Origin: Brucella tritici
GTDB lineage: Bacteria > Pseudomonadota > Alphaproteobacteria > Rhizobiales > Rhizobiaceae
Direction of reading: 5' to 3'
Length of the DNA stretch: 64,000 bases
Assembly (NCBI RefSeq): GCF_902825325.1
Contig: NZ_CADEAR010000004.1
Span: forward strand, 62,001 to 126,000
Position numbers and translations under genes: made by a program. The notes beneath the pieces were generated by a model. It had not been told where the DNA came from. It did not search any database and saw only the letters and a program-made list of their open reading frames with translations. Positions 15,580 through 23,309 of this stretch are shown here, piece by piece (positions within the stretch are counted from its first letter, which is position 1; every line of letters begins with the position of its first letter).

Positions 15580-16188
15580 TTACCAGGTTTTTGTCTCGTT
15601 TATGCCGTTTGCGATGCGCTTGGCAGTGGTTACGACCAGAAGCAGGCAAAGGAACGGCTGCAGCCAGAAAATCCAGTCCGGGAGGCCGCCGTCAATAGCG
15701 ATCCAGGCGCCGAGTACGCCGAAGACGACGGCGCGGTCGCTCTTGCCCATCGGACCGTCATAGCGGCGGCTCGCACCCACGGACGCACCGGTAACGCCTG
15801 TAAACTCCGTCAGGGTGGCCAGCAGTATAATCGCAAAAATCCAGGGCGCTGACAAAGGTGCGATGATCGCAAACGGTGCGTACAGCGCGGCATCGGAGAC
15901 GACATCGCCAATCTCGTTGAGATAGGCACCGAGCGTCGATTTCTGCCCATGTTCACGCGCCAGCATTCCGTCGACGGCGTTCAGCGCCATGCGCAGGAAC
16001 AGCCAGATCGGGACGAGTGCAAACCATGCCGCCTTTCCACTCCACGCCAGAAAAGCGCCAAGTATGACCGAGACGAGCGCGGCAGCGACTGTAACCTGAT
16101 TGGCCGTTACACCGCCTTCGGCAAGTCGCACGACAAGAGGCCGCAGTAAATTCTGGAAACGCGACTTGAGTTGATAAACCGACATCAA
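15580..16188 (-). CDS. ynbA: CDP-alcohol phosphatidyltransferase, YnbA-like
   Basis: This 202-residue membrane enzyme should transfer a phosphatidyl group from CDP-diacylglycerol to an alcohol headgroup. The CDP-alcohol signature is near residue 73 (DGMLAR, then an eight-residue gap, G, and D later), but the third of the four usual aspartates is asparagine (GAYLNEIGD). A further aspartate follows in VVSD. About five or six hydrophobic segments surround it. It diverges from a run of genes matching the E. coli ynb set (YnbC-, YnbD- and YnbB-like), which supports the YnbA assignment. The headgroup is unknown. Confidence 0.8.
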   Translation of the reverse strand: MMSVYQLKSRFQNLLRPLVVRLAEGGVTANQVTVAAALVSVILGAFLAWSGKAAWFALVPIWLFLRMALNAVDGMLAREHGQKSTLGAYLNEIGDVVSDAALYAPFAIIAPLSAPWIFAIILLATLTEFTGVTGASVGASRRYDGPMGKSDRAVVFGVLGAWIAIDGGLPDWIFWLQPFLCLLLVVTTAKRIANGINETKTW

Positions 16189-16326
16189 GAATCTCTTGGG
16201 AAACGAAGAATAAGTATTGAACAGCTATTTGCGGTTCGCTCCAGCTCGTTTATTCAAACATTTGGTTTCACTCAATAGAAATTGGGGGCAATTGTCCCAT
16301 GAGGAAACATCTGGAGAGGGGATGGC

Positions 16327-18111
16327 ATGAACGAGCACGCTACAAACCGGCATCGCGCGGCGCAGGAAAGCCAGTTCGTCACCCATGACGGCACGTCGCT
16401 ATTCTACCGTTTCTGGCCATCACTCTCCGACAAGCCGAAAGGCGTGATTGTCCTCCTGCATCGCGGTCATGAACACAGCGGACGCGTCGCGCACCTCGTT
16501 GATGAGCTGGGGCTGGACGACTACGCCTTCTACGCATGGGATGCGCGCGGCCACGGCCAGTCGCCGGGCGTGCGTGGCTTCTCGCCCTCATTCGGTGCGT
16601 CGATCCGTGACCTGGATAGTTTCGTAACCCATATCCGACAGGAAACCGGCACCGCCATCGAAGATGTGGCGATTATCGCGCAGAGTGTTGGCGCGGTGCT
16701 GGCCGCTGCCTGGGTGCATGATTATGCGCCGAATATTCGGGCGCTGGTGCTGGCTTCACCTGCCTTCGACATCAAGCTCTATGTGCCCTTCGCCAAGGAG
16801 GGCATCGGCCTGTGGCAGAAGCTGAAGGGCACGTTCTACGTCAATTCCTACGTCAAACCACAGTTTTTAACTCATGATCCGGAACGCATCGAATCCTATC
16901 GCACCGATCCGCTGATCACGCGGCCCATCGCATCGCATATCTTGCTTCAGCTTTATGAGGCGGCAAAGCGCGTGGTGGACGATGCGCGGGCGATCACCGT
17001 TCCGACGCAACTGCTCATTTCCGGTAGCGATTTTGTCGTGCGTACCGCACCGCAACATCGCTTCTTCGAGAATCTCGGCAGCCGCATCAAGGAGCGGCAT
17101 GTGCTGAAAGGCTTCTACCACGACACGCTGGGCGAGCGGGATCGCAAGCCGGCCATCGAACGCATCCATGATTTCATCGAGGCTCGTTTTGCAGAAAAGC
17201 CGCAGCGCGCTGATCTGACCGAAGCGCATATTGCTGGCCACACGCGCGACGAGGCTGACCGGCTGTCCAGCCCGCTGCCGCTTCTGACCGCGCAGGGGCT
17301 TTACTGGGCGTCGACACGCGCTTCGATAGCCTTCGGCGCATTGTTTTCGGAAGGGTTGAAAGTCGGCAAGCGCACGGGCTTCGATTCCGGTTCCACGCTC
17401 GATTACGTTTATGAGAATGAAGCGCGGGGCCTCGGGCCGGGCGGCAAGCTTATCGACAAGCAGTTTCTGGAAGCCATCGGCTGGCAAGGCATCCGGCAGC
17501 GCAAGGTGCATCTGGAGGAACTGATCGGTGCGGCGATCAAACGGCTCAAAAGCGAGGGCCGCTCGACCAATATTCTCGACATTGCCTGCGGCCATGGCCG
17601 TTATGTCATCGATGCGGTGGTGCGTGCTGACGAAATGCCGGACAGCATTCACCTGCGGGATTATTCGCCGATCAATGTGCTGGCAGGCAACAAGCTCATC
17701 AGGGATCGCGGGCTGGAATCCATCGCTCATATGGAAGAGGGCGACGCTTTCAATGCGGAAACCCTCGCGGCGGTCACGCCTAAGCCGGACCTCGCCATCG
17801 TGTCCGGTCTTTATGAACTCTTCCCCGATAATGCGCTGATCAATCGTTCGCTGTCGGGGCTTGCCCGCGTGCAGAGACCCGGCTCATTGCTGATTTACAC
17901 CAACCAGCCATGGCATCCGCAGCTTGAAATGATCGCGCGGGCACTGACCTCGCATCGCGGTGGCGAGGCATGGGTGATGCGCCGCCGCACGCAGGGCGAA
18001 ATGGACCAGCTTGTCGAGAAGGCAGGCTATCGCAAGCTCGAACAGCGCGTCGATCAGTGGGGCATTTTTTCCGTATCGATTGCAGAACGCGTTGGAGACG
18101 GCGAAGCGTGA
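16327..18111 (+). CDS. ynbC: Alpha/beta hydrolase fused to SAM methyltransferase, YnbC-like
   Basis: This 594-residue protein has two domains. The N-terminal half (about 15-290) is a monoglyceride-lipase/lysophospholipase-type alpha/beta hydrolase, with WDARGHGQS and a nucleophile serine near residue 120 in an unusual elbow (AQSVGA instead of G-x-S-x-G). A C-terminal histidine is likely in GFYHDTLGE. The second half (about 340-590) is a class I SAM-dependent methyltransferase with motif I ILDIACGHGRY near 420. The fusion fits E. coli YnbC. Its substrates are presumably the lipid made by the neighbouring enzymes. The stop overlaps the GTG start of the next gene. Confidence 0.82.
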   Translation: MNEHATNRHRAAQESQFVTHDGTSLFYRFWPSLSDKPKGVIVLLHRGHEHSGRVAHLVDELGLDDYAFYAWDARGHGQSPGVRGFSPSFGASIRDLDSFVTHIRQETGTAIEDVAIIAQSVGAVLAAAWVHDYAPNIRALVLASPAFDIKLYVPFAKEGIGLWQKLKGTFYVNSYVKPQFLTHDPERIESYRTDPLITRPIASHILLQLYEAAKRVVDDARAITVPTQLLISGSDFVVRTAPQHRFFENLGSRIKERHVLKGFYHDTLGERDRKPAIERIHDFIEARFAEKPQRADLTEAHIAGHTRDEADRLSSPLPLLTAQGLYWASTRASIAFGALFSEGLKVGKRTGFDSGSTLDYVYENEARGLGPGGKLIDKQFLEAIGWQGIRQRKVHLEELIGAAIKRLKSEGRSTNILDIACGHGRYVIDAVVRADEMPDSIHLRDYSPINVLAGNKLIRDRGLESIAHMEEGDAFNAETLAAVTPKPDLAIVSGLYELFPDNALINRSLSGLARVQRPGSLLIYTNQPWHPQLEMIARALTSHRGGEAWVMRRRTQGEMDQLVEKAGYRKLEQRVDQWGIFSVSIAERVGDGEA

Positions 18112-19433
18112 CCACGCAATTAACGGAAGTGGATGGATCTTCACGGTGGTCAGTGATCCGCCGCGCGGTCCTTTGGCTTCTGTTTCTTGGCCCCTTTTTC
18201 TATCTGACCTACGGTACGGCGAACTGGTTCGCATCGCAGCAAAGTCACGTACCGAACCTTGCTTTCGAGTGGGAACACCATGTTCCCTTCATCGCGTGGA
18301 GCATCATTCCCTATTGGTCGGTCAATCTGTTCTATGCGATTGCGCTGTTCGTCAATGACAGCCCGGAACAGGTCGACCGGCTGGCAAAGCGCTATCTCAC
18401 CGCGCAGATCGTCGCTGTTCTCTGCTTTGTCGCTTTTCCGTTGACCGCAACTTTCGTAAAACCGGCAACAGCCGGGCTTCCGGGTTTCATGTTCGATGTG
18501 CTTGGCGGCTTCGACAAACCCTTCAATCAGGCGCCATCGCTGCATATTGCGCTCTTGATTATCATCTGGGACCAGATGCGCCGCATAATGGGCGACGCCA
18601 TGCGCGTGGTCTGGCATGTCTGGTGTCTGCTGATCGGTCTGTCGGTGCTCACCACCTATCAGCACCACGCGGTCGATATTCCGGCAGGCGCGTTGCTTGG
18701 CCTGTTTGCCCTATGGCTTTTTCCGCGCAGCGGTCCTTCGCCGCTCGCGGGCTTTCGTTTCAACTTTGATACGAGAGCCAAACGAATCGGTTTTTGTTAT
18801 CTGGCGGGTGCAGTCCCGTTTCTGGCTCTGGCAATCCACGGCTTGTCCATCACTGGTTATGCGATTTTCTGGCTCTGGCCCGCGACGGCACTTGCCGTCG
18901 TCGCTCTTGGCTATCTCGGTGCCGGTGCCGGCATTTTCCAGAAACAGACAGATGGATCGGTCAGCCTCGCAAGCCGCTGGCTGCTTTGGCCCTACCGGCT
19001 TTTTGCCCGACTGAACGTGCGGTTCTGGACACGCAAGCTGCCGCCGCATGTCGAACTTGCCGACGGAGTGTTTCTTGGACGGTATCCAAAACCAGCGGAG
19101 CTTTCCCCCTTTGCTGCCGTCGTTGATCTTGCCGCTGAAATGGTGCCGCCACGCCATTTGCCAAGTCATTCAATTGAATGGAAAAGCTTTGGCGCGCTTG
19201 ATCTGGTCGCGCCGTCATCCGAAACAGTGCGACTGGCATCCGATGCCGTTGAAGCTGCGCGCCATCATGGTCCGGTGCTCATCTGTTGTGCGCTTGGTTT
19301 TCAGCGCAGCGCCGCGGTTGCAGTCGCGTGGCTCGTCTCTACTGGCCGCGTCGCCAGTGTGCGTGAGGCCGAAACGCTGATCCGCTCCAAGGGCTGGCCT
19401 GTCCATCTGCATCGTGCCGAGGGGGTGGCATGA
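18108..19433 (+). CDS. ynbD: PAP2/inositolphosphotransferase-like membrane domain fused to tyrosine-type phosphatase, YnbD-like
   Basis: This is a 441-residue two-part protein. The N-terminal membrane half has a PAP2-superfamily core with PSLHIALL near residue 143 and HHAVDIPAG near 187, the two histidine motifs typical of lipid phosphatases and inositol phosphotransferases. The C-terminal part is a dual-specificity phosphatase-like domain with the C-x5-R loop CALGFQRSA near residue 394. The open frame reaches 17970, but GTG 18108 overlaps the upstream stop (GTGA) and begins right before the first membrane segment. The last four bases overlap the next gene. Likely roles are dephosphorylation or headgroup transfer on a phospholipid. 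Confidence 0.8.
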   Translation: MTTQLTEVDGSSRWSVIRRAVLWLLFLGPFFYLTYGTANWFASQQSHVPNLAFEWEHHVPFIAWSIIPYWSVNLFYAIALFVNDSPEQVDRLAKRYLTAQIVAVLCFVAFPLTATFVKPATAGLPGFMFDVLGGFDKPFNQAPSLHIALLIIIWDQMRRIMGDAMRVVWHVWCLLIGLSVLTTYQHHAVDIPAGALLGLFALWLFPRSGPSPLAGFRFNFDTRAKRIGFCYLAGAVPFLALAIHGLSITGYAIFWLWPATALAVVALGYLGAGAGIFQKQTDGSVSLASRWLLWPYRLFARLNVRFWTRKLPPHVELADGVFLGRYPKPAELSPFAAVVDLAAEMVPPRHLPSHSIEWKSFGALDLVAPSSETVRLASDAVEAARHHGPVLICCALGFQRSAAVAVAWLVSTGRVASVREAETLIRSKGWPVHLHRAEGVA

Positions 19434-19861
19434 ATTCTCCGGCAACGTCCATCGCGATTGTGTTGCGCCGCAATGCCGTTCTCGGCATCGCGGTCGCCGT
19501 CGTGCTGCTTGCGGCCGGGCCCTTCATGCGCCCGGTGCATGATCTGGCTTTCTGGCTGATCTGGCCGCTGCTGTTGGCGAGCGCATTGATCGTGCTGGGT
19601 ATTGCAGCGCATCTTCTGTTCGATGCTGCGCTTTTCAAGCTGATCGCCGGTTCCGGTGAAACGGGATTGGGTGAGGTAGATAGCATTCTTGAGCGCATGG
19701 GTTTGCGCTCCAATGACGGCACGGTCCGTCCACTTGCGAAAAGGATGGAAGGCTCGCGACGGATCATGGGGCGTCTGTGTTTCTTCATGGGGCTTGGTAT
19801 TGTGCTTTTCATTCTGCTGGCCACAGTGCCATTGGGGCAGCCATTAGGATGGGGGCTGTGA
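19430..19861 (+). CDS. Small membrane protein of the ynb-like locus
   Basis: This is a 143-residue protein with three or four hydrophobic segments (about residues 14-33, 40-65 and 118-140) and a short soluble loop (GSGETGLGEVDSILERMGL and following). It overlaps the ynbD-like gene by four bases and ends two bases before the plsC-like gene, so it is part of the same operon. I do not recognise a family. It may be a membrane partner or scaffold for the lipid enzymes around it. Confidence 0.65.
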   Translation: MNSPATSIAIVLRRNAVLGIAVAVVLLAAGPFMRPVHDLAFWLIWPLLLASALIVLGIAAHLLFDAALFKLIAGSGETGLGEVDSILERMGLRSNDGTVRPLAKRMEGSRRIMGRLCFFMGLGIVLFILLATVPLGQPLGWGL

Positions 19862-19862
19862 C

Positions 19863-20516
19863 ATGCGGGAACTGGTTCGCCATCAGGTGCAATCGATTTT
19901 CGGTTCGTTTCTGGCAATCCTGTCGCGCGGGATAACCGGCGTGCGACCAATCTGGAGCGGCACTGGTCCGTCGCGCAATCAGCGTATCTATTTTGCCAAC
20001 CATACAAGCCACGGCGATTTTATCCTGCTTTCCTCCTGTCTCGATCAGGAAGAACGCGCGCGCACCCGTGCTGTCGCTGGTGCCGATTATTGGCGGGGCA
20101 ACCGCGTGCGCCAGTTCATGGCGGAAGTTCTGTTGCGCACCGTGCTTGTCGAGCGCAACTGGGTGGAACGCACGCAAGACCCGATGGAAGTGATGCTGAA
20201 AGCGCTGGCCGATGGCCATTCGCTCATCATCTTTCCCGAAGGCACACGCAACATGACCGATGAAGCGCTGCTGCGCTTTCGTTCCGGCATCTATAATCTG
20301 GCGCTGTCGCGTCCTGATGTCGAGCTGGTGCCCTGCTGGATCGAAAACATGTCGCGTGTGTTGCCCAAGGGCGCAATGCTGCCGGTGCCGCTGCTGTGTC
20401 GCGTGATTTTTGGTGCGCCGGTGCAGCTTCGCGACGGCGAGGACCGCAAGGAATTTCTCGCCCGCGCTCGCCAGAGCCTTCTCGATATTCAGCCTCAGAA
20501 TGGTAATCACTCATGA
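19863..20516 (+). CDS. 1-acyl-glycerol-3-phosphate acyltransferase (PlsC family)
   Basis: This 217-residue acyltransferase carries the catalytic H-x4-D motif in NHTSHGD near residue 46 and the phosphate-binding FPEGTRN near residue 124. These are the two hallmark blocks of the PlsC family, which acylates lysophosphatidate to phosphatidate. It follows the small membrane protein by one base and overlaps the CDP-diacylglycerol synthase-like gene by four bases. In this locus it probably feeds phosphatidate to that enzyme. Confidence 0.88.
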   Translation: MRELVRHQVQSIFGSFLAILSRGITGVRPIWSGTGPSRNQRIYFANHTSHGDFILLSSCLDQEERARTRAVAGADYWRGNRVRQFMAEVLLRTVLVERNWVERTQDPMEVMLKALADGHSLIIFPEGTRNMTDEALLRFRSGIYNLALSRPDVELVPCWIENMSRVLPKGAMLPVPLLCRVIFGAPVQLRDGEDRKEFLARARQSLLDIQPQNGNHS

Positions 20517-21442
20517 GTGAAACAACCCGATTATTCCTTGGCCTCATGGGCGTTCTGATAACGGCAAGCGCCGTTGCCGGTGTTCTTTCTTGGCGCGCCC
20601 CGAAGCCGCTGTCATCCACGCTGGTCAATCTCAATGCCCGCATCAAGGCATGGTGGATCATGGTTGGCGCCATGTGCATCGCCTTCCTGTTCGGCAAGGG
20701 CGGCGTGATCGTGCTGTTTGCGCTGATCTCGTTTGCTGCGTTGCGTGAATATGCAACGCTGACGCAAACACGCCGCGCCGACCATCACGTGCTGCTCGGC
20801 ATGTTCCTGCTGGTTATCCCGGTGCAATATTATCTGATCTGGATCGACTGGTACGGGCTCTATTCCATCTTCATCCCGGTTTATTGCTTCCTCGCCATGC
20901 CGGTTCTGACAGCACTTTCCGGTGACACGTCGCGCTTTCTGGAGCGCATCAGCGAACAGCAGTGGGGCATCATGCTCTCGGTCTATTGCATCAGCCATGT
21001 GCCCGCGCTGATGACGCTGGATATTCCCGGTTTCGATGGCAAGAAGCTGCTGCTGATCGCGTTTCTGGTGGCCACGGTGCAGGGCAGCGATGTGCTGCAA
21101 TATATTTTCGGAAAGCTGTTCGGAAAATATCGGATCGCGCCCAGTATATCGCCATCCAAGACATGGGAAGGGTTTGTGGGCGGAGTGGCTGCAGCCTCAC
21201 TTCTGGGGGCAGGTCTTGCATGGCTGACGCCGTTTTCGCCGGTTCAGGCGGGTGCACTTGCTGCAACTTCCTGCATCATGGGCTTTTTCGGCGGGCTGGT
21301 CGCTTCCGCCATCAAGCGTGATCGCGGCGTGAAGGACTGGGGACACATGATTGAAGGACATGGCGGGATGCTTGACCGTGCCGACAGCCTCGTTTTTTCG
21401 GCGCCTGTCTTCTTTCACATCGTGCGTTACTTCTGGACGTGA
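20513..21442 (+). CDS. ynbB: CDP-diacylglycerol synthase (CdsA family), YnbB-like
   Basis: This 309-residue integral membrane cytidylyltransferase activates phosphatidate with CTP to form CDP-diacylglycerol. The family signature is present near residues 263-280 (SAIKRDRGVKDWGHMIEGHGG), and PSISPSKTWEGFVGG near residue 215 is also typical. About eight hydrophobic segments are visible. It is probably a second, specialised cytidylyltransferase, because it sits in the ynb-like lipid operon. It matches YnbB in the E. coli set and would feed the YnbA-like transferase. Confidence 0.87.
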   Translation: MSETTRLFLGLMGVLITASAVAGVLSWRAPKPLSSTLVNLNARIKAWWIMVGAMCIAFLFGKGGVIVLFALISFAALREYATLTQTRRADHHVLLGMFLLVIPVQYYLIWIDWYGLYSIFIPVYCFLAMPVLTALSGDTSRFLERISEQQWGIMLSVYCISHVPALMTLDIPGFDGKKLLLIAFLVATVQGSDVLQYIFGKLFGKYRIAPSISPSKTWEGFVGGVAAASLLGAGLAWLTPFSPVQAGALAATSCIMGFFGGLVASAIKRDRGVKDWGHMIEGHGGMLDRADSLVFSAPVFFHIVRYFWT

Positions 21443-22589: not shown

Positions 22590-23309
22590 TCATACCCTGT
22601 CGGCGGTGCGTGTCGGTTCTTCCCTGTCGATCAGATGGGAAGGGGCAGCAAATTGCAGCAGCCTGTTCTTGTTCGTGATCTTGATCGCGGAGGCCTGCAC
22701 GCTGACGCCATGCGAGCCAAGCGTCGCAAAATTGCGCGACAGGTTTTCCGGCGTCATGCCGAGATAAGCGGCAAGCGTCCGTTTTTCATAAGGGATCATC
22801 ACGACCTCCGCGCCGTTGTTCAACAGCGATTCCTTGACGATCCAGTTGGCGAGGCGCTGCACACTGCTTCGAAGCTTCTGTGCCTTCAGTTCCTTGACCA
22901 GACGGCGATAGGAGCGTGCGGTTTCAAAAACGACGGCGCGCATGAAGCCTAGATCCTCGCTCATCAAATCCCGGACAAGGCTGGAGGGCACCATCAACAC
23001 GCGGGTGGGCGTCAGTGTCTGCGCAGTCTGCAGGCACACGTCGTCATTGAGAACCGCGGCGAGAATGAAAATATCGTCGTTGCGCAATATCTCCAGCGCG
23101 GTTTCGCCGTCATCCGATTTCGCCGACATCAGCACGAGGCCATCGAGGATCGCGAACAGAAAGTCCGCAGGCTCGTCCTCCTTGATCAAGGTCGTGCGCG
23201 GTGGAAATGACTGCACGAAGCTCGGACGCATGATCCGCTCGAATGTGGCATCTGCCATATCCATGAAAAGCGGCAGATTTCTCAGCGCGTCGATATCTTC
23301 CTTCCGCAT
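22590..23309 (-). CDS. narR: Crp/Fnr-family regulator of nitrate respiration, NarR-type
   Basis: This 239-residue regulator has an N-terminal cyclic-nucleotide-binding-like beta-roll and a C-terminal helix-turn-helix (RTLAAYLGMTPENLSRNFATL, about residues 177-197). It has a single cysteine, so it cannot hold the four-cysteine iron-sulphur cluster of FNR. That fits the NarR/DNR/NnrR branches that sense nitrate, nitrite or NO. It is divergent from narK-narGHJI with two perfect FNR-type boxes in between, which is the arrangement expected for NarR. AGGGAGG lies upstream of the ATG. The NarR label rests on synteny and the missing cysteines; a DNR-like NO sensor is the alternative. Confidence 0.8.
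   Translation of the reverse strand: MRKEDIDALRNLPLFMDMADATFERIMRPSFVQSFPPRTTLIKEDEPADFLFAILDGLVLMSAKSDDGETALEILRNDDIFILAAVLNDDVCLQTAQTLTPTRVLMVPSSLVRDLMSEDLGFMRAVVFETARSYRRLVKELKAQKLRSSVQRLANWIVKESLLNNGAEVVMIPYEKRTLAAYLGMTPENLSRNFATLGSHGVSVQASAIKITNKNRLLQFAAPSHLIDREEPTRTADRV

What the first reader, a model, noticed from the sequence alone, without database searches (positions are those of the whole stretch)
15580..21442. Extended ynb-like phospholipid locus with unknown product
The sequence shows a CDP-alcohol phosphatidyltransferase, a hydrolase-methyltransferase fusion, a PAP2-plus-tyrosine-phosphatase fusion, a small membrane protein, a PlsC acyltransferase and a CdsA-type cytidylyltransferase, coupled by overlaps of a few bases. 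Four of these match the E. coli ynbABCD set. PlsC and the 143-residue membrane protein make it a near self-contained pathway from lysophosphatidate to a phosphatidyl-alcohol that may then be dephosphorylated, deacylated or methylated. I infer a dedicated, possibly novel, membrane lipid.
Basis: partly seen in the sequence, partly recalled or inferred. Interest (0 to 1): 0.78.

Follow-up and report, generated by a model that had tools for sequence, protein, structure and literature searches.

The report
Conserved six-gene unknown phospholipid pathway
Six neighbouring genes, four of them shared with an unstudied E. coli gene set, travel together across many bacteria and probably build and modify one minor membrane phospholipid that has yet to be identified.

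Summary
The six genes are there and form a real unit. Five are co-directional and almost contiguous (three 4-nt overlaps, one 1-nt gap); the YnbA gene is divergent, not coupled. Of 101 long loci drawn by YnbC, 80 hold all six. In an unselected 398-genome phylum draw the small membrane protein occurs in 26 genomes, all among the 27 with YnbC (Fisher 6e-40). Where the cluster is split, genes move in pairs: plsC-ynbB in two genomes, ynbD-small in one. Eight genomes without YnbC hold ynbA-ynbB-plsC. So there is a core (PlsC, YnbB, YnbA) and a tailoring set (YnbC, YnbD plus small protein); E. coli holds a reduced version. YnbA lacks two of the eight 'absolutely conserved' residues of its class: D1 and D3 are Asn in 108 of 108 sequences; three sister enzymes of the genome keep Asp. 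Best reading: a dedicated minor-phospholipid pathway ending in a methylated, perhaps dephosphorylated and deacylated phosphatidyl-alcohol. The product is not shown; printed E. coli data argue against PG and bulk lipid supply.

The parts
15580..16188 (-). YnbA-like CDP-alcohol phosphotransferase, divergent; D1 and D3 of the class signature are Asn (N69, N90 counted from the ATG at 16185)
16327..18111 (+). YnbC: monoglyceride-lipase-like hydrolase (S120, D235, H265) fused to Methyltransf_20
18108..19433 (+). YnbD: PAP2-type membrane domain (S144, H146, H186, D190) fused to dual-specificity phosphatase domain (C394, R400); inferred GTG start, 4-nt overlap with ynbC
19430..19861 (+). small membrane protein (three hydrophobic stretches, all-helical model) without a known family; goes with ynbD
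19863..20516 (+). PlsC-type 1-acylglycerol-3-phosphate acyltransferase (NHxSxxD, FPEGTR); goes with ynbB
20513..21442 (+). YnbB: CDP-diacylglycerol synthase paralogue; the genome also holds a separate cdsA-type gene

Best explanation
A dedicated pathway for a minor membrane phospholipid, made of a core and a tailoring set. Core: PlsC acylates lysophosphatidate to phosphatidate; YnbB turns it into CDP-diacylglycerol; YnbA, nearest to the inositol-phosphate-using synthases but with a remodelled metal site, moves the phosphatidyl group to a small soluble alcohol, most likely an alcohol phosphate from general metabolism. Tailoring: YnbD, with the small membrane protein as its partner, removes (or transfers) a phosphate; the methyltransferase half of YnbC methylates the product and its monoglyceride-lipase-like half removes an acyl chain or clears side products. 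Shown: gene content, co-occurrence, pairings, conserved catalytic residues. Inferred: every substrate, the order of steps, the small protein as a physical partner, and the methylated product.
For: Co-occurrence, also where the cluster is split. Closed gene set: in 39 loci no other protein family recurs in more than 5, apart from one cluster in 7 that looks like a wrong-frame ORF. Catalytic residues of YnbB, YnbC, YnbD and PlsC near-invariant. All 36 YnbA tested match the archaetidylinositol-phosphate and the phosphatidylinositol-phosphate synthase models of NCBIfam, which are also the two best for the window copy; both kinds of enzyme use inositol phosphate (PMC4634129, passages). PIPS Arg195, whose change raises the KM for inositol phosphate, aligns with an invariant Arg190 in four alignment modes. 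A second, cdsA-type gene in the genome. In print for E. [quoted passage not shown]
Against: No lipid has been tied to these genes. In all four alignments PIPS Arg155 falls on Ala152, one residue beside the invariant Arg151, and Lys135 and Ser132 of PIPS are not kept, so the acceptor-phosphate argument rests on one Arg plus family resemblance. No inositol-1-phosphate synthase in this genome, and E. coli is not among the control genomes where that family rings, so the acceptor is unknown. YnbA lacks two metal-binding Asp and might be inactive. Of 37 genomes with a YnbA match 10 have neither YnbC nor the small protein. In print, E. coli YnbB raises a different lipid, MPIase, when overproduced.
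Confidence: 0.6

Rival explanations
1. A second or stress-time route to a known lipid such as phosphatidylglycerol or cardiolipin.
For: PlsC, CDS and a CDP-alcohol phosphotransferase plus a lipid phosphatase are the steps of PG synthesis (recalled); PTPMT1, a PGP phosphatase (function recalled), is a weak relative of the YnbD phosphatase domain (3rgo, 9.8e-6; many other phosphatases score better).
Against: E. coli YnbD does not rescue a strain without PGP phosphatases (PMC7413402, passages; I saw no proof there that YnbD was made); YnbB does not replace CdsA; the window YnbA matches the pgsA model at 20.6 bits against a cut-off of 109; a methyltransferase has no place in PG synthesis.
Confidence: 0.13
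2. A lipid-repair or turnover unit: YnbC deacylates damaged or lysophospholipids, PlsC re-acylates, YnbD and the rest recycle head groups.
For: YnbC hydrolase half is monoglyceride-lipase-like by sequence and fold; a PlsC-type gene is in the same unit.
Against: In L164 and L165 the YnbC frame holds only the methyltransferase half; eight genomes hold ynbA-ynbB-plsC without YnbC.
Confidence: 0.12
3. Support for the glycolipid MPIase (GlcNAc-PP-diacylglycerol), with YnbB as backup enzyme, as proposed in print for E. coli.
For: YnbB overproduction raises MPIase, restores it when CdsA is depleted, and loss of ynbB worsens the defect in a Tam41 background (PMC6362211, PMC7018664, passages).
Against: Deletion of ynbB alone leaves MPIase unchanged; the passages I saw give no role to YnbA, YnbC, YnbD, PlsC or the small protein, which co-occur with YnbB.
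Confidence: 0.08
4. YnbA is a pseudoenzyme that only scaffolds or senses CDP-DAG; the real work is done by the other proteins (not exclusive of the readings above).
For: D1 and D3, metal ligands in PIPS structures (PMC4634129, PMC6506517, passages), are Asn in 108 of 108.
Against: The other six signature residues (D2, G1, A, R, G2, D4) and a Glu next to N90 are invariant too; YnbA is present at all 109 YnbC loci and in eight genomes that have the core without YnbC.
Confidence: 0.1

Closest known systems
E. coli ynbABCD
   Same: Homologues of YnbA, YnbB, YnbC, YnbD, adjacent
   Different: E. coli has no plsC and no small membrane gene at the locus, and all four genes run one way
Phosphatidylinositol-phosphate synthase / archaetidylinositol-phosphate synthase
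   Same: Best NCBIfam and PDB relatives of YnbA; Arg195 equivalent kept
   Different: Scores far below the curated cut-offs (48 of 170 and 75 of 180 bits); D1 and D3 are Asn; Lys135 not kept; no inositol-1-phosphate synthase in the genome
CdsA, CDP-diacylglycerol synthase
   Same: CTP_transf_1 domain and signature near-invariant
   Different: Distinct from the genome's other cdsA-type gene (profile E 6e-152 against 2e-30); N-terminal half of E. coli YnbB reported unrelated to CdsA (PMC7018664, passages)
Monoglyceride lipase
   Same: Best fold and sequence match of the YnbC hydrolase half
   Different: Fused to a Methyltransf_20 domain; the GxSxG nucleophile motif reads AQSVG in the window
PAP2 phosphatases (PgpB type) and dual-specificity phosphatases
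   Same: Ser/His/His/Asp of PAP2 motifs C2 and C3 and the CX5R loop are kept
   Different: Motif C1 is reduced to [RK]P in 96 of 103; the two domains are fused; E. coli YnbD replaces neither PGP nor C55-PP phosphatases in vivo (PMC7413402, passages)

Membership tests
Class I CDP-alcohol phosphotransferases (YnbA) | eight signature residues D1xxD2G1xxAR...G2xxxD3xxxD4 | tested here: not met
   six of eight kept; D1 and D3 are Asn in 108 of 108
Class I CDP-alcohol phosphotransferases (YnbA) | domain homology (PF01066) | tested here: met
   37.1 bits over a cut-off of 22
Class I CDP-alcohol phosphotransferases (YnbA) | six or more membrane helices | tested here: inconclusive
   five hydrophobic stretches by a simple hydropathy scan; no structure was predicted
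PIP synthase (YnbA) | score over the NCBIfam equivalog cut-off | tested here: not met
   48 of 170 bits, and 75 of 180 for the archaeal model
PIP synthase (YnbA) | both acceptor-phosphate Arg (M. tuberculosis R155, R195) | tested here: inconclusive
   R195 kept; R155 falls on Ala152, beside Arg151
E. coli-type ynb set | YnbA, YnbB, YnbC, YnbD homologues together | tested here: met
CDP-DAG synthase (YnbB) | CTP_transf_1 signature KR..KD, HGG..DR.D | tested here: met
   92 of 92 at nine positions, 91 of 92 at the last Asp
PlsC-type acyltransferase | HX4D and FPEGTR | tested here: met
   88 or 89 of 89 at the five positions checked; substrate not testable
PAP2 phosphatase (YnbD, N-terminal half) | motifs C1 KX6RP, C2 PSxH, C3 ...HX3D | tested here: inconclusive
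   S144, H146, H186, D190 in 103 of 103; C1 reduced to [RK]P. Pfam PAP2_3 matches 20 of 30 and PAP2 21 of 30 members
Dual-specificity phosphatase (YnbD, C-terminal half) | CX5R loop and upstream Asp | tested here: met
   98 of 103 for C and R, the rest gaps; 97 of 103 for Asp, the rest gaps
PGP phosphatase (YnbD) | dephosphorylates PGP in vivo | not testable with these tools
   reported negative for E. coli YnbD (PMC7413402, passages)
Any known family (small protein) | match in Pfam or PDB, by sequence or fold | tested here: not met
   no PDB sequence match at E 1; Pfam: four families, each with one member of 29, E 0.02-0.09; no PDB fold match at E 0.001, best 0.84

The most novel reading that the evidence does not exclude
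The module makes an undescribed methylated phospholipid through a CDP-alcohol phosphotransferase that works with an Asn-substituted metal site, and the small protein is a new partner subunit of the phosphatase; E. coli K-12 carries a reduced, still unassigned version.
Probability: 0.4. Interest if true: 0.82.

Novelty: new variant of a known kind. Interest (0 to 1): 0.62.

Why it matters
Every part but one is a familiar lipid-enzyme family, yet the combination matches no pathway I could name. The unit is widespread, present in most E. coli genomes in reduced form (a match over at least 80% of ynbABCD in 4242 of 5426), and was not assigned a product in the passages I saw. The core/tailoring split and the two gene pairs say which genes to express together, so the question 'what do the ynb genes make' becomes directly testable. 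If YnbA is active, a motif taken as absolute for the enzyme class is not absolute.

Tried and rejected
A PIP-synthase label for YnbA: rejected on cut-offs and residues. PG synthesis: set low mainly on printed complementation data. Fold search of the small protein: confident model of its 120-residue core (pLDDT 95) but no match. Fold search of YnbC: the 50 rows shown are nearly all alpha/beta hydrolases by title; the first whose title names no hydrolase is 3ocj, rank 32, which I did not check; no PDB sequence match to the methyltransferase half was listed. Search for recurrent neighbours: the first script was swamped by wrong-frame ORFs and was discarded; the filtered run (ORFs of 100 aa or more) found only a TetR-type regulator (5 of 39 loci), an SDR-like protein (4) and one cluster in 7 loci that looks like a wrong-frame ORF (the two labels are mine, from the sequences).

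Paper searches (all ten): 'ynbABCD' 0 papers; a five-term search 0; some searches gave the papers cited and otherwise incidental or unrelated ones. Of these I saw passages of PMC13313352 (ynbC in a list of mutated genes in persistence lines), PMC3855560 (ynbD in a list of candidate fitness genes), PMC13031359 (ynbA in a transposon list), PMC10134817 (ynbA down in one condition) and PMC12419801 (unrelated). Only open-licence papers are held, so absence from print is not shown; the BBRC 2019 YnbB paper was seen only as described in PMC7018664.

Presence means a profile match at E 1e-5 within the fetched stretch. The set was drawn by YnbC, so its presence there is by construction. Counts were repeated on the 36 loci over 13 kb of 39 representatives (37 below 80% YnbC identity plus L164 and L165). 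Dropped before residue counts for low coverage: YnbA 1 of 109, YnbC 2 of 109, small protein 1 of 96. One YnbC-positive genome of the phylum draw (G449) was not fetched. Of the 13 long loci without plsC and ynbB, only G310 (L160, same contig as L080), G102 (L161) and G353 (L158) were searched genome-wide; the other Rhizobium loci were not. In the eight core-only genomes YnbC and the small protein were sought genome-wide, YnbD only in the fetched 8-19 kb.

Full report
What is there. The window lies in a 4.76 Mb genome, by inference of the genus Brucella, Ochrobactrum group: the nearest named YnbC matches are B. oryzae (98%, best segment) and B. tritici (97%). ynbC, ynbD, small, plsC and ynbB run on the + strand with 4-nt overlaps (18108-18111, 19430-19433, 20513-20516) and one 1-nt gap; ynbA runs the other way, 138 nt off.

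Is the unit real? In 109 loci found by YnbC (80 named, 27 unnamed, E. coli, window), iterated profiles found ynbA in 109, ynbD in 103, the small protein in 96, ynbB in 92 and plsC in 89. Of 101 loci longer than 15 kb, 80 hold all six; ynbD and small are both present in 94, both absent in 5, and ynbD alone in 2 (E. coli and L091); plsC and ynbB are both present in 85, both absent in 13, and ynbB alone in 3. On 36 long representatives, 28 hold all six; ynbD/small: 30 both, 4 neither, 2 ynbD alone; plsC/ynbB: 32 both, 2 neither, 2 ynbB alone. The commonest order is ynbA-C-D-small-plsC-ynbB on one strand (48 of 109); the window's arrangement with divergent ynbA is the second (13 of 109). The named loci include alpha-, beta- and gammaproteobacteria and two MAGs labelled Acidobacteria.

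Unselected check. In one draw of 398 genomes of the phylum, the window's own included, Methyltransf_20 (YnbC) occurs in 27, the small protein in 26, and YnbA in 37 at E 1e-20. The 26 are all within the 27, and the 27 are all within the 37 (Fisher 6e-40 and 6e-34; by genus the small protein is in 12 of the 13 YnbC genera and 0 of the other 200, 1e-18). Of the 27, 22 have all six at one locus. Three have all six in two pieces: G310 and G102, where plsC and ynbB sit side by side on another contig, and G262, where ynbD and small sit 43 kb away. G353 has ynbA and ynbC together and ynbB on another contig, with no plsC at E 1e-20 and no small protein. G449 was not fetched. Of the 10 genomes with YnbA but no YnbC, eight have ynbA-ynbB-plsC together, one (G168) has partial ynbA and ynbB frames, and one (G344) is a weaker hit without the motif or the neighbours. 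Two further loci, from other families of the order (G044, G050), carry the methyltransferase half alone with ynbA-ynbB-plsC.

Reading of the anatomy. The pattern gives a core (YnbA, YnbB, PlsC), a pair that adds to it (YnbD, small protein) and YnbC. That the set stays complete and that pairs move together in the split cases argues for function and not mere hitch-hiking. No further gene family recurs widely at the loci, so the head group probably comes from general metabolism. The genome has a second cdsA-type gene and three other CDP-alcohol phosphotransferases, which by sequence I take as PgsA, PssA and a phosphatidylcholine-synthase type (my labels; no call names them).

YnbA. All 36 members tested match the archaetidylinositol-phosphate and the PIP synthase models; the window copy is far below both cut-offs. 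The class signature is described as eight absolutely conserved residues, with the first three Asp binding metal and the fourth likely as base (PMC4634129, passages); a di-nuclear metal site is formed by D68, D71, D89 and D93 of the M. tuberculosis enzyme (PMC6506517, passages). In YnbA, D68 and D89 are N69 and N90 in four alignment modes and in 108 of 108 sequences, always followed by a Glu; nine of the ten YnbA frames from genomes without YnbC have the same, the tenth (G344) lacks the motif. The three sister enzymes of this genome keep Asp. Either the site binds metal differently or YnbA is not a transferase; the invariance of the rest speaks for activity.

Other parts. YnbC: lipase triad and methyltransferase motif I kept in 106 or 107 of 107; fold of the hydrolase half nearest to monoglyceride lipases. 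YnbD: both catalytic centres kept. PlsC and YnbB: signatures kept. Small protein: all-helical model, pLDDT 95, three hydrophobic stretches in the window copy and in 17 of 29 members at a laxer threshold, Asp84 in 95 of 95 and Asp65 and Arg105 in 94 of 95; no known relative.

What is in print. For E. coli, YnbB makes CDP-DAG in vitro, raises MPIase when overproduced and cannot by itself replace CdsA, though it can when a yeast CDP-DAG synthase is co-expressed (PMC6362211 and PMC7018664, passages). YnbD has no ascribed function and does not replace PGP or C55-PP phosphatases (PMC7413402, passages). ynbB turned up in a transposon screen of strains with only phosphoglyceride-linked ECA but is not needed to make it (PMC8609368, passages). 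None of the passages I read treats the genes as one pathway.

Verdict. Observation confirmed with two corrections; pathway reading well supported by comparative genomics; product unknown. It is a broadly conserved variant of CDP-diacylglycerol-based lipid synthesis, of real interest because it is testable in E. coli K-12 and because YnbA breaks a class rule.

Noticed in passing
L120 (Brucella oryzae record) and the contig of the same length in G006: The ynbC copy is interrupted in frame in this assembly (three pieces); could be decay or an assembly error.
   Followed up: no
window:23549-26287 and onward: A 912-residue ORF that looks like a fused pair of nitrate/nitrite transporters (NarK-like), followed by a 1254-residue ORF that may be a nitrate reductase large subunit; these labels are recalled. 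A regulator with CRP/FNR-type domains lies just upstream (22590-23309).
   Followed up: no
window:21455-22549: Phytase-like esterase gene convergent with ynbB; no such family appears among the neighbours that recur in the loci examined.
   Followed up: partly
L090, L114, L131, L164, L165: A TetR-type regulator (my label) lies near five of 39 representative loci, two of them the methyltransferase-only form.
   Followed up: no
L218: A genome whose nearby ORFs look like AzoR and LdhA of E. coli (recalled) has ynbA-ynbB-plsC there, so plsC may have been present in an enterobacterial ancestor and lost in E. coli.
   Followed up: no
L220 (G168): Partial ynbA and ynbB frames in a 1.9 Mb genome, apparently decaying.
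   Followed up: no
L082: On a Rhizobium plasmid, ynbD, small, plsC and ynbB each give two hits: a duplication or split frames.
   Followed up: no
same-genus genomes G002-G004, G013, G020, G025, G027, G029, G031, G032: Ten of 35 genomes of the genus (own included) lack Methyltransf_20, among them the smallest well-covered ones.
   Followed up: no
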